DNA of 64,000 nucleotides from Prauserella halophila (GTDB taxonomy: Bacteria; Actinomycetota; Actinomycetes; Mycobacteriales; Pseudonocardiaceae). The notes beneath the pieces are model-generated. The model was given only the letters and a program-made list of their open reading frames with translations. It was not told where the DNA came from and did no database searches. Below are positions 15,793 to 23,164 of the stretch, one piece after another. The translations under genes and the position numbers were made by a program. How positions within the stretch are numbered: the first letter of the stretch is position 1; every line of letters begins with the position of its first letter. The DNA is taken from NCBI RefSeq assembly GCF_024171895.1, contig NZ_JAMTCQ010000008.1:1054001-1118000 (forward strand). The letters run 5' to 3'.

Positions 15793-18700
15793 TCAGCCGC
15801 GTTCGATGCGGTGGCCGATGACCTCCGGGCCGGGGTGGGCCGCGCCGGAACCGTCGCGGCGGTCGTCGATCTCGGGCAGCTCCACCGCGTCTCCCTTGCG
15901 GGAACTGCCCGCGGGCCTCGGTCCGATCCACGCCACCCGGATCGCGTCCTCGCCCTTGAGCAGCCGGTGCGCGCGTACACCCACGGTCGCACGGCCCTTG
16001 GCGGGGTACTCCGCGAACGGCGTCACCTTCACCGTCTCGCCCGTCGCCGTGACGACGAGCGGCTCACCGTGATCGTCGTCGTCCGTGCGCACCGCGCCGA
16101 AGAACACCGCCTCGGCGTCGCCGGACAGCTTCACGCCCGCCATGCCTCCGCTCTTGAGCCCCTGCGGCCGCACCAGCGAGGCCGAGTAGCGCAGCAGCGA
16201 CGCCGCCGAGGTCACGAACGCCAGCTCCTCCTCGCCGTCGGTCAGCCACGTGGCTCCGACGACCTCGTCCCCCTCCTTGAGGTTGATGACCTCGAATTCC
16301 TCCGACCGCACCGGCCAGTCGGGCGCGCACACCTTGACCACACCGGCCTTCGTGCCGAGAGCCAGCCCCGGCGAGTCGCCGATGTGGTCCCCGAGCGGGG
16401 CGAGTCCGACGATCCGCTCGCCCTTCGCCAACGGCACGAGCTCCTTCGAAGCCATTCCACCGCGCAGCGACACCGTTCCGCTCTGCTCCGGCAGCACCGG
16501 CAGCGGCAGCACGTCCACCTTGAACGCGCGTCCAGCGCTCGTCACCAGCACCACCTGGCCACGGGCGGTCGTGCGCACGAGCCCGTGCACCGCGTCGTGT
16601 TTCACGCGGCCGCTGCGACGGCGGTTCTCCTGCGCCTCCTCCGATTCCGCCGCCGTGCGGGCGACGAGGCCGGTGGCCGACAACACCACGTGGCACGGGT
16701 CGTCGGCGACCTCCAGCGGCCCGGCCGGTTTGGACGCGGCCAGCACCTCCTTGAGGTCACCGTCGATCAGCGCGGTGCGCCGTTCGGTCGGGAAGTCCTT
16801 GGCGATCGTCGCCAGCTCGGCCGAGACGACCTTCTTGAGCTCCTTGTCGTCGTCCAGGATCTTCGACAGCTCCGCGATCTCCGCGCGCAGCTTCTCGTCC
16901 TCCTGTTCGAGGTCGAGCTTGTCGAACTTGGTCAGCCTCCGCAGCGGAGTGTCCAAAATGTAGGTCGCCTGGATCTCGGTGAGTTCGAACCGCTTCATCA
17001 GGCCATCCTTCGCGGCCTGCGCGTTGTCGCTCTGCCGGATGAGCTTGATGACCCTGTCGATGTCGACGAGCGCCTTGAGCAGGCCTTCCACCAGGTGCAG
17101 CCGCTCCTCCCGCTTGCGCCTGCGGTAGCGGGTGCGGCGGGTGACGACGTCGTAGCGGTGCTGGAGGAACACCTCGAGCAGCGGCTTCAGCCCGAGCGTC
17201 TGCGGTTTCCCGTCGACGAGCACGAGGTTGTTGATGCCGAACGACTGCTCGAGCGGCGTCAACCGGTACAGGTCGGCCAGCAGCGCCTGCGGGTTGACGC
17301 CGACCTTGCACTCGATGACCAGCCGCGTGCCGTTCTCGCGGTCGGTGAGGTCCTTGACGTCGGCGATGCCGGTGAGCCGTTTGGTCTTGTTGACCTCGTC
17401 GGTGATGCGTTCGATCACCTTCTCCGGGCCGACGCCGTAGGGCAGCTCGGTGACGGTGATGCCCTGCCGCCTGCTGCCCTCGACCGGGCCGGTCTCCACG
17501 GTCGCCCGCATCCGCACGACACCGCGGCCCGTCTCGTAGGCCTTGCGCACCTGGTCCAGGCCGAGCAGCTGCCCACCGGTGGGCAGGTCGGGCCCCGGCA
17601 CGAACTCCATCAGCTTGTCGAGCGAGGCGTTCGGATGGTTGATCAACCAGCGTGCGGCGGCGATGACCTCGCTGAGGTTGTGCGGGATCATGTTCGTCGC
17701 CATGCCGACGGCGATCCCGGACGTGCCGTTGACGAGCAGGTTCGGGAAGGACGCGGGCACCACCGACGGTTCGAGCAGTTCGCCGTCGTAGTTCGGCCGC
17801 ATGTCGACGGTCTCTTCGCCGAGTTCGCCGACGAGCAGCATCGCCTCGGGCGACATGCGAGCTTCCGTGTTGTGGTTGACGAAACCGCCGGCGAGGAAGG
17901 AATGGTCGTCCGACTCGACGCGAACCGAGTACACTTCGGCCGGTTCTGCCTCCTCGACGGCGGTGACCTGCTCGAACCGGTACCCGGAATCCATGATCGG
18001 AAGGATCGTCTTCAGGACCTCGGTGTCCTTGATCCGGTCGATGATGCGGAGACGCTCGGTCTCCCAACGCTCCATCCGGTCGAAATTGTGCTGCGTGAGC
18101 CACTTCCGCCCGCTGCCGCGCCGGTCGAAGTCCAAGGCACCGCGCACGTAGTCGGCCACGAACGGAACGTGGTCGGAGCTCAACCGGTGTGGGCGTAGCG
18201 GCGAGCACTGCAGCAACTCCTGCAATGTGGCCTGCTTGGTCTTGAGAAACCCTACGCGCTCGGCGAAGGCCTTGACATTGCGCGGGCCCGCGATGACCAG
18301 TCGCCGCTCGATCGAACCGCTCTGCCGCGTGTAGGCACAGATTCGCGCCATGACACCGAACTCCGCCAGCAGCTCCTGCATTTCGGATGCCAGACGCTCA
18401 CTGTAGGTGCTGTACTGGATGGTGAACGAGTTGTCGGCCCGACGAACGCCACCGTCGCCCTCGAACGCGGCCATCAGAAACGCACGCTTGGTTCCCCAGC
18501 CGCCCGTCCAGACATGTTCCGGCACGAACTTTTCCTTGGCCCCGTGCCCGATGAACTCGGCCAAGGGGCTACGCCGGAACGCGTCCATGCCGCCCGCGTA
18601 CTCCCGGATGTCCAGTTCACGAATCCGCTTCCGGTCGCGGCGTGTCTCCCGCTCGTACACGTACCGCTGACCGCCGACAACCTGGTCGTAGGCGTGCAAC

Positions 18701-19563
18701 ACCTCGTCGAAGTAGTGGTCGTCGGTGTTGTTGAACCCGGCGCGATTCTCGCCGGCGAAACCTTCCGAGACCCACGCACCTGCGAGTACACCCAGCATGT
18801 ACTCGCGCGCGGTGGGCACGACCTGTGTCCAGGCGTTGCGTGCCACGCAGACGACCGATCCCGGCTCGACCTCGTCCAACCTGCGCCACTGGAACAGTGG
18901 GACACCGGCAGGCGCTTCGAGGCACAGTACGAGGTGGTTCTCGCTGCCACGCAGTGAGAACCCGGACTGCGTGGTCATGCGCAGGGTCGGATGCACCCCG
19001 GAGTTGAAGACCTTGTTCACCCGAACGGCCTTGCCGTCCTTGTCGAGCACCTCGAAGTCGGCATCCGCCTCGGAGTTCTCGGACAGATCGACCATGTCGG
19101 CGATACGCGGGCTCGACCCGTCCGCGAGCCGGATACGAGTGTCACCCACGACGCAGTAACGCGAGGCTGCCGGTCCGTCGTCCGGGCTTCCGAAATTACC
19201 GTGCCCGTCCACCAGCGGGACGTTCATCGAGAAGTCCTGCGCCAGGCGCACCATCGCGTCGTAGATCGCGACGTCGCCGTGCGGGTGGTAGCGGCCCATC
19301 ACGTCGCCCACCACGCGGGAGGACTTCACGTACGCGTGGCTGGGCCGGTAGCCGTTCTCGTTCATGGAGAACAGGATCCGGCGGTGCACCGGCTTGAGGC
19401 CGTCACGGGCGTCCGGCAGGGCCCGGGAGTGGATGACCGAGTAGGCGTACTCCAAGTACGAGTCCTCGATCTCGGCCGTGAGCGAGTTGTCGTAGACCTG
19501 GGCGCCGGCCTGGTCGAACGCGGCCGGATCGACGCGGGTGGTCGGATTCTTTCGGCGTGCCAT
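15793..19563 (-). CDS. parC: Type IIA topoisomerase subunit A (ParC-like), intein-interrupted
   Basis: 1256 codons: an 827-residue host protein carrying a 429-residue intein (residues 137-565). The host part has the winged-helix/tower features [25 protein letters not shown], catalytic Tyr136 in AASRY, and a C-terminal beta-pinwheel domain. No GyrA box (QRRGGKG) is seen and the sequence [18 protein letters not shown] differs from actinobacterial GyrA, so it is called the second enzyme, topoisomerase IV-like as in Streptomyces, not gyrase. Cuts and rejoins DNA with ParE as partner, encoded just upstream on the same strand. ATG is preceded by AGGAG. The intein must splice for activity because it splits the catalytic Tyr from the following Thr. 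Confidence 0.85.
17869..19155 (-). mobile_element. Intein in ParC with LAGLIDADG homing endonuclease
   Basis: 429 residues inserted between the catalytic Tyr and Thr of the host (SRY / TEARM). N-terminal splice block [10 protein letters not shown] with Cys1; block B has SENH (Ser in place of the common Thr); C-terminal blocks [17 protein letters not shown] and VNHN, followed by host Thr+1. The central part holds two dodecapeptide motifs, [12 protein letters not shown] and [11 protein letters not shown], both keeping the acidic residue next to Gly, so the endonuclease may be active. The insertion site is the same as that of the mycobacterial GyrA intein (from memory). Confidence 0.93.
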
Positions 19564-22600: not shown

Positions 22601-23164
22601 GCGGATCGACGTGCCGGTGGACTCGCCGCGTTTCATCTTCCGCGCGACCCGCAGCCCCGACTGCGGCGTGAACTTCGATTTCGGGCCGGGTCCGTCGAAC
22701 ACGCCGGCGGTACCGCGGGCGAACGACATCTCGTGGACCTTGCCGTCGCGCCGCACCGTGACGTCGAACCGCAGCGACAGCGCGTTGACCGCCGACGCTC
22801 CGACGCCGTGCAGACCACCGGAGGCCTTGTAGCCCGAGCCACCGAACTTGCCACCCGCGTGCAGCCGCGTCAGCACCAGCTCGACACCCGAGGTCCCCGA
22901 CTTGGCGTGATTGCCGGTGGGGATGCCGCGGCCGTTGTCGTCGACCTCGACACTGCCGTCGGCGTGCAGCGTGACCACGACGCGGTCGGCGTGGCCGGCC
23001 ACGCCTTCGTCGGTGGAGTTGTCGACGATCTCGGCGAAGAGGTGGTTCACGCCGCGGCTGTCGGTGGACCCGATGTACATGCCGGGCCGCTTCCGCACCG
23101 CTTCCAATCCCTCGAGGTGGGTCAGGTCGTCGGCCCCGTACAGGGTCTCGGCCGAAGCAGTCAC
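19646..23164 (-). CDS. parE: Type IIA topoisomerase subunit B (ParE-like), intein-interrupted
   Basis: 1172 residues: a 688-residue host with a 484-residue intein (residues 477-960). The GHKL ATPase domain shows [19 protein letters not shown] and [13 protein letters not shown]; the Toprim domain has EGDSALG split by the intein and later [30 protein letters not shown] segment follows the junction. Start GTG 23164 is chosen over the longer frame to 23248 because GGGAGAGA precedes it and homology begins at [14 protein letters not shown]. Supplies ATP-driven strand passage together with ParC downstream on the same strand. Whether the pair is decatenase (Topo IV) or gyrase cannot be proved from sequence alone. 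Confidence 0.85.
20285..21736 (-). mobile_element. Intein in ParE with HNH-type nuclease domain
   Basis: 484 residues inserted in the Toprim motif between EGDSALG and [11 protein letters not shown]. Block [11 protein letters not shown] with Cys1, block B CTPDH with Thr and His, block [14 protein letters not shown], block G FVHN, and host Ser+1. The central insert has an HNH-like segment ([18 protein letters not shown]) followed by a long Arg/Ala-rich part with repeats of helix-turn-helix-like DNA-contact modules (NUMOD-like, inferred). The site is equivalent to that of the cyanobacterial GyrB intein (from memory). Confidence 0.92.

What the first reader, a model, noticed from the sequence alone, without database searches (positions are those of the whole stretch)
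15793..23164. Two inteins in one topoisomerase: ParE and ParC both split in their catalytic motif
Both subunits encoded by the parE-parC pair carry a full-length intein, one in the Toprim motif (EGDSALG/S) with an HNH-type nuclease, the other next to the catalytic tyrosine (Y/T) with a LAGLIDADG nuclease. The two inteins are of different nuclease type, so they were gained separately. The enzyme needs two splicing events before it can work, and both sit at residues where unspliced protein is dead. I know of single inteins in GyrA and GyrB; the joint presence in a second type IIA topoisomerase looks uncommon.
Basis: partly seen in the sequence, partly recalled or inferred. Interest (0 to 1): 0.82.

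Follow-up and report, generated by a model that had tools for sequence, protein, structure and literature searches.

The report
Two inteins in one topoisomerase IV
In a soil actinobacterium, both genes for a DNA-untangling enzyme are interrupted at the catalytic centre by self-removing mobile protein inserts of two different kinds, related to inserts long known in DNA gyrase, and relatives show stages from empty sites to double invasion.

Summary
In a Prauserella (Pseudonocardiaceae) genome, parE holds a 484-aa intein at EGDSALG|S (HNH-type by motif) and the adjacent parC a 429-aa intein at RY|T, directly after the catalytic tyrosine (LAGLIDADG). They are the only inteins an intein N-terminus model finds in the genome; gyrA and gyrB are empty. 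Empty sites in relatives are exact. In carriers chosen by extein flanks alone, splice residues are kept in 51 of 51 ParE and 30 of 30 ParC inteins, while nuclease parts are often deleted or mutated: self-splicing mobile elements, not retained domains. The ParE intein belongs with GyrB inteins at the same site, the ParC intein with GyrA (Mxe GyrA-type) inteins, each in its own clade. Recent ParE-intein transfers show in Prauserella and Micromonospora. Double occupancy is not rare: of 97 scored family genomes 13 carry both, 12 only ParE, 11 only ParC, 61 neither. A correlated-evolution test supports coupling (1 of 100 simulations reaches it), a paired test does not, and the two inteins do not share one lineage history: stepwise invasion, as in haloarchaeal MCM. 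One ParE intein (S. espanaensis) is probably in print under gyrB. Splicing and cleavage were not tested.

The parts
21737..23164 (-). ParE N-extein (ATPase, transducer, Toprim start up to EGDSALG)
   Evidence: GTG start with GGGAGAG upstream
20285..21736 (-). ParE intein, 484 aa, Cys1 ... His-Asn, C-extein Ser+1
21509..21520 (-). ParE intein block B, TPDH (T-x-x-H)
   Evidence: invariant in the 26 family ParE inteins aligned
21200..21280 (-). ParE intein HNH-like motif [27 protein letters not shown]
   Evidence: motif shared with GyrB inteins; Pfam HNH_3 weak
20285..20353 (-). ParE intein C-terminal splicing blocks [23 protein letters not shown]
   Evidence: intein_Cterm 9.8e-7
19646..20284 (-). 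ParE C-extein (212 aa, rest of Toprim and C-terminus) with stop
19156..19563 (-). ParC N-extein, 136 aa, ends at catalytic Tyr (RY)
17869..19155 (-). ParC intein, 429 aa, Cys1 ... His-Asn, C-extein Thr+1
18934..18948 (-). ParC intein block B, GSENH (S-x-x-H)
18760..18795 (-). LAGLIDADG motif 1, [12 protein letters not shown]
   Evidence: acid present in this copy
18448..18480 (-). LAGLIDADG motif 2, [11 protein letters not shown]
   Evidence: LAGLIDADG_3 6.5e-15
17869..17937 (-). ParC intein C-terminal splicing blocks [23 protein letters not shown]
15793..17868 (-). ParC C-extein with stop

Best explanation
Both topoisomerase IV genes carry a standard (class 1 type) intein. After translation each intein excises itself through Cys1, the block-B Thr/Ser-x-x-His, the terminal His-Asn and the +1 Ser (ParE) or Thr (ParC), joining EGDSALG to S and RY to T, so a working enzyme forms only after both events (inferred from the residues; not observed). 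At DNA level each intein is a homing element: the HNH-type nuclease (ParE) or LAGLIDADG nuclease (ParC) is expected to cut its own empty site and be copied in by repair (inferred; transfer of ParE inteins is seen in relatives). The two inteins were acquired separately, from the GyrB-type and GyrA-type intein families at the homologous sites, and double carriers in this family most likely arise by stepwise invasion of the parE-parC operon rather than by joint transfer.
For: Splicing models on both, LAGLIDADG model on ParC. Cys1, block-B His and terminal His-Asn in 51/51 ParE and 30/30 ParC inteins selected only by extein flanks, no stop codon inside any of these, lengths 158-486 (ParE) and 188-429 aa (ParC) with interior deletions. 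Exact empty sites. Fold: ParC model pLDDT 83, best Foldseek matches intein homing endonucleases, Mxe GyrA at ranks 13-14; ParE splicing ends match inteins. ParC profile to 1AM2 (Mxe GyrA) E 2e-32. Trees. Transfer: P. aidingensis/P. rugosa ParE intein silent difference 0.030 vs extein 0.355, p 3e-19; M. lutea/CP22 0.010 vs 0.157, p 7.5e-6, with near-identical flanks 2/300 vs 94/1536. Fewest changes on the extein tree: 19 for the ParE intein, 17 for the ParC intein.
Against: No protein evidence of splicing. The HNH call is motif-based and weak by profile; the ParE nuclease region is poorly modelled (mean pLDDT 60.5, 194 of 484 residues under 50). Only 2 of 1275 ParE pairs and 0 of 406 ParC pairs show inteins significantly closer than exteins after Bonferroni, while 443 and 72 show the reverse, so most transfers are old or inteins simply evolve faster. 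Joint transfer is not excluded.
Confidence: 0.88

Rival explanations
1. The insertions are retained lineage-specific domains of mature ParE and ParC.
For: Open frames without stops in the 51 ParE and 30 ParC inserts checked.
Against: Exact empty alleles in the same genus, and for ParC even between Lentzea albidocapillata and its subspecies; splice residues kept while the interior is freely deleted; insertion inside Toprim and next to the catalytic Tyr.
Confidence: 0.02
2. Inteins are present but at least one no longer homes; the pair is simply inherited and being lost.
For: Nuclease decay is common: HNH-like motif missing in at least 11 of 51 ParE inteins, both LAGLIDADG acids not found in 19 of 32 ParC inteins; the ParC intein of own and P. 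aidingensis fits vertical descent (0.284 vs 0.235, p 0.18).
Against: Own copies keep both motifs; recent ParE intein transfer in the same genus.
Confidence: 0.3
3. The two inteins co-home: one break and repair carries both across the roughly 1.1 kb between the sites.
For: More double carriers than expected (13 of 97; Fisher OR 6.0, p 7.6e-4); correlated evolution; a model with simultaneous gain and loss is slightly better on the ParE tree (LRT 6.31, p 0.04).
Against: The simultaneous-change model is not clearly better on the concatenated tree (LRT 4.07 for 2 more rates); ParE and ParC intein distances are not significantly linked beyond extein distance in 19 double carriers (partial r 0.20, 439 of 5000 permutations as high); own vs P. 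aidingensis differ strongly in the ParE intein (0.479) but not in the ParC intein (0.284). In haloarchaeal MCM co-homing was found inefficient (PMC10643990).
Confidence: 0.15
4. The inteins have been kept as a conditional switch on topoisomerase IV (for example redox, as argued for M. smegmatis DnaB).
For: Cys1 in both; precedent PMC6195587 (passages seen).
Against: Patchy presence and frequent empty alleles. No regulatory feature was looked for here.
Confidence: 0.07

Closest known systems
GyrA intein at RY|T (Mxe GyrA, PDB 1AM2; GyrA inteins of this family and, probably, of Mycobacterium)
   Same: Same insertion point next to the catalytic Tyr, homologous splicing and LAGLIDADG domains
   Different: Host is ParC; other side of a branch with SH-aLRT 100; 43-49% identity to the family's full-length GyrA inteins; block B GSxNH in 32 of 32 ParC inteins, GTxNH in 36 of 38 GyrA inteins
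GyrB intein allele ('gyrB' allele of Soucy et al. 2014, PMC4071816: Halobacteria, cyanobacteria and others)
   Same: Same Toprim insertion point EGDSA[L/G]G|S, same HNH-like motif
   Different: Host is ParE; own clade (SH-aLRT 99, which warns of long branches); 34-39% best-segment identity to the full-length GyrB inteins found
Double inteins MCM-a/MCM-d of Haloferacales (PMC10643990)
   Same: Two neighbouring inteins, excess of double carriers, frequent transfer
   Different: Here two genes of one operon encoding partner subunits, and two nuclease types
M. smegmatis DnaB double intein (PMC6195587)
   Same: Two inteins in one essential replication enzyme
   Different: One polypeptide; here two subunits

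Membership tests
Class 1 intein | Cys/Ser 1, block B T-x-x-H, terminal HN, +1 Cys/Ser/Thr | tested here: met
   ParE C1, TPDH, HN, +1 S; ParC C1, S-x-x-H (Ser for Thr), HN, +1 T
Class 1 intein | Hint fold | tested here: met
Class 1 intein | Splices out with extein ligation | not testable with these tools
   no protein data
GyrA-type (RY|T) intein | Same site and homologous sequence | tested here: met
   NCBIfam GyrA_w_intein 1034 bits, under its 1850 cut-off
GyrA-type (RY|T) intein | Resides in GyrA | tested here: not met
   host is ParC; own gyrA is a separate intein-free gene
GyrB-type Toprim intein | Same site and homologous sequence including HNH-like motif | tested here: met
GyrB-type Toprim intein | Resides in GyrB | tested here: not met
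   host is ParE; own gyrB intein-free
Homing endonuclease (LAGLIDADG, ParC) | Two motifs with acidic residue | tested here: met
   (own copy)
Homing endonuclease (HNH, ParE) | Profile match to an HNH family | tested here: inconclusive
   motif present, Pfam HNH_3 0.076 (82)
Homing endonuclease | Cuts the empty allele | not testable with these tools
   needs assay
Topoisomerase IV | Second type IIA pair beside gyrase | tested here: met
   gyrA and gyrB on contig C3, parE-parC in the window; enzyme function not tested

The most novel reading that the evidence does not exclude
The two topoisomerase IV inteins are evolutionarily coupled: a lineage that has the ParE intein gains the ParC intein roughly ten times faster (fitted rates 0.86 against 0.08) and, while the ParC intein is there, does not lose the ParE intein (fitted loss zero), so invasion of one operon tends to proceed in a set order, across two nuclease families and two partner subunits. 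Several fitted rates lie at zero, so the direction is tentative.
Probability: 0.3. Interest if true: 0.6.

Novelty: new member of a known kind. Interest (0 to 1): 0.42.

Why it matters
It shows that the GyrA and GyrB intein families also occupy the paralogous sites of topoisomerase IV, gives a natural bacterial series from empty to doubly invaded operon, and offers a second case, with two nuclease types, for testing whether neighbouring homing elements help or hinder each other. For annotation it explains 'overlong' ParE and ParC proteins in actinobacteria.

Tried and rejected
Rarity of the pair: rejected. Retained domain: rejected. Co-homing as the main route: not supported, not excluded. Recent jumps between ParC and GyrA: not seen, the two sets lie on two sides of one branch. 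GyrB inteins of this type in the family: none seen among 150 genomes searched with the ParE intein profile; 26 of the 27 matching genomes match in parE, the 27th (G147) is weak (E 7e-4) in another frame; at most 10 first-look candidates per genome were scored. Phage donors: 12 records (ParE intein) and 11 records (ParC intein), all under 60% identity. Plasmids were searched with the ParE intein only: one record, a Bernardetia gyrB, 31%. Local conversion tract in the P. aidingensis/P. rugosa case: none seen beyond a few codons. A link between short ParC and short ParE inteins was noticed but not tested, because the carriers are related.

Searches of print: 'intein+ParE+ParC+topoisomerase', 'intein+gyrase+insertion site+Actinobacteria', 'inteins+topoisomerase IV', 'intein+GyrA+GyrB+homing endonuclease', genus names with intein (20 of 80 papers listed), 'intein+ParE' as whole words, 'intein distribution/DNA gyrase/multiple inteins'. 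No listed title or start of abstract is about ParE or ParC inteins; of the listed papers I opened only PMC7765530, PMC4071816, PMC6195587 and PMC10643990. Novikova 2016 on intein clustering is not held, so absence from print is not shown.
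Full report
Anatomy. The parE and parC genes lie adjacent on the minus strand (23164-19646 and 19563-15793). Each has one in-frame insert flanked by conserved halves: ParE 484 aa at EGDSALG|S, ParC 429 aa at ASRY|T. Splicing-domain models match both inserts, LAGLIDADG_3 the ParC insert. The inserts have slightly lower GC3 than the exteins (0.851 vs 0.918; 0.839 vs 0.928). The genome's gyrase genes are on another contig and are intein-free. An intein N-terminus model finds only these two inteins in the genome; a model search can miss others (the Pfam model found only the ParE one).

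Organism. Three same-genus survey genomes have the contig lengths of Prauserella isguenensis, P. aidingensis and P. rugosa records, so the window is Prauserella.

Survey. Of 150 family genomes searched with ParE, 98 gave a match that I took as ParE (839 bits or more); the other 52 gave only weaker, GyrB-like matches. The match listing was cut, but these 98 rank first; only 4 first-look candidates per genome were scored. For each of the 98 I fetched parE plus downstream DNA (a few reach a contig end). Scores: both inteins 13, ParE only 12, ParC only 11, neither 61, ParC off the contig 1. Each of two motif patterns missed a few ParC genes (four and three of the survey); combined, only G081 stays unscored. 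Among six congeners: P. aidingensis both, P. isguenensis ParE only, P. rugosa a 303-aa ParE intein only, three neither. Survey ParE inteins are 183-486 aa and ParC inteins 188-429 aa; further named genomes go down to 158 aa for ParE.

Splicing kept, nuclease lost. Cys1, block-B His and terminal His-Asn are present in 51 of 51 ParE and 32 of 32 ParC inteins; two of the ParC rows (L271, L272) had been selected with a pattern that asks for Cys and His-Asn, so 30 of 30 is the fair figure. The HNH-like motif is missing in 11 of 51 ParE inteins (a loose pattern, so a minimum), and both LAGLIDADG acids were not found in 19 of 32 ParC inteins (some may be pattern failures).

Relatives. The ParE intein alignment was scanned against the one-genome-per-species collection (a pattern scan): 210 stretches encode a relative, the best 80 were kept, 75 distinct loci. 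The full-length 43-49% matches of the ParC intein in the family that I checked (14 loci, L052-L065, and L301, L302) lie in GyrA at the same position. Trees, both by a quick method with SH-aLRT support: 31 ParC against 31 GyrA inteins form two sides of one branch (support 100; 62 of 70 rows, those under 300 aa left out); 43 ParE and 16 GyrB inteins form one side each (99 and 96; 70 of 82 rows, those under 280 aa left out, which warns of long branches). In a class-wide sample of 394 genomes, 51 match the ParC profile (at most 4 candidates scored per genome); of its 29 new loci put to a GyrA/ParC comparison, 24 are GyrA, 3 ParC (L271, L272 and survey genome G045) and 2 neither. In a phylum sample of 396 genomes, 27 match the ParE profile, most of them weakly; the strongest besides the window's own that were checked are GyrB.

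Movement. Silent-site comparison of 1275 ParE and 406 ParC carrier pairs (all pairs of 51 and 29 carriers): two ParE pairs have inteins significantly closer than exteins after Bonferroni, P. aidingensis/P. rugosa and Micromonospora lutea/CP22; no ParC pair does. In the second pair, flanks are nearly identical near the site (2 of 300 against 94 of 1536 positions, p 7e-6; tract limits chosen after looking), as expected after homing. In both pairs one partner has lost the nuclease part. The window's own ParE intein is more diverged from its congeners' than the exteins are (0.43-0.48 vs 0.22-0.31); 443 ParE pairs overall show that direction significantly, so this alone does not prove a separate gain.

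Coupling. Double carriers exceed expectation (Fisher p 7.6e-4), but independent pairs on the tree do not reach significance (on average 4.3 same, 1.4 opposite, 5.3 no difference; median p 0.375). A Pagel-type dependent model is better (LRT 22.1 on the ParE tree; 18.7 on a concatenated extein tree without the site flanks, 1 of 100 simulations as high). Some fitted rates lie at zero, so directions are tentative. Among 19 double carriers the two inteins' distances are not significantly linked beyond extein distance.

Structure. The ParC intein model (pLDDT 83, pTM 0.85) resembles whole intein homing endonucleases (TliVMA, PI-PfuI) and, by its splicing part, Mxe GyrA. The ParE model (pLDDT 60.5) is reliable only at its ends, which match inteins.

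Literature. Soucy et al. 2014 (PMC4071816, passages seen) list Saccharothrix espanaensis DSM 44229 under the gyrB intein allele. Survey genome G110 has the 9,360,653-bp chromosome reported for that strain (PMC3469384, passages and section 5 seen; contig length), and the only ParE/GyrB-type intein found in it is in parE (10 of 35 candidates scored); the protein accession itself was not checked, so one ParE intein is probably already in print under the gyrB name. PMC10643990 (passages and introduction read) reports neighbouring MCM inteins that occur together more than expected yet do not co-home efficiently. PMC6195587 and PMC7765530: passages seen. The class 1 mechanism and the roles of the catalytic Tyr and Toprim residues are recalled general knowledge.

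Noticed in passing
G133 (P. aidingensis) C20 and C30, L301/L302: GyrA also carries an intein (421 aa), so three of four type IIA subunits are interrupted; the gyrB-gyrA stretch is on two contigs, 7260 bases 100% identical, perhaps an assembly duplicate.
   Followed up: partly
G132 (L061, L089), G049 (L071, L306): Two further genomes with inteins in ParE, ParC and GyrA together.
   Followed up: partly
L228, L230, L231, L234-L240: Related HNH-type inteins in another host protein (GKS[ST]YAR|C) in Trueperaceae, Chloroflexi, Bipolaricaulota and proteobacteria; host not identified.
   Followed up: no
L223: Intein in a GyrA/ParC-like protein at a different site (GQGNWG|S).
   Followed up: no
ParC intein window 18934-18948 and ParC inteins of A2: ParC inteins have Ser in block B (GSxNH, 32 of 32) where 36 of 38 GyrA inteins have Thr (GTxNH).
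   Followed up: partly
L182, L199: Lentzea albidocapillata and its subspecies violacea differ in the ParC intein.
   Followed up: no
Family survey: 52 of 150 family genomes gave no ParE-level match, so topoisomerase IV may be absent from several genera of this family.
   Followed up: no
Staphylococcus jumbo phages: GyrA inteins distantly like the ParC intein (10 of the 11 phage records are Staphylococcus phages; about 31% over the N-terminal 103 residues in most of those shown).
   Followed up: no
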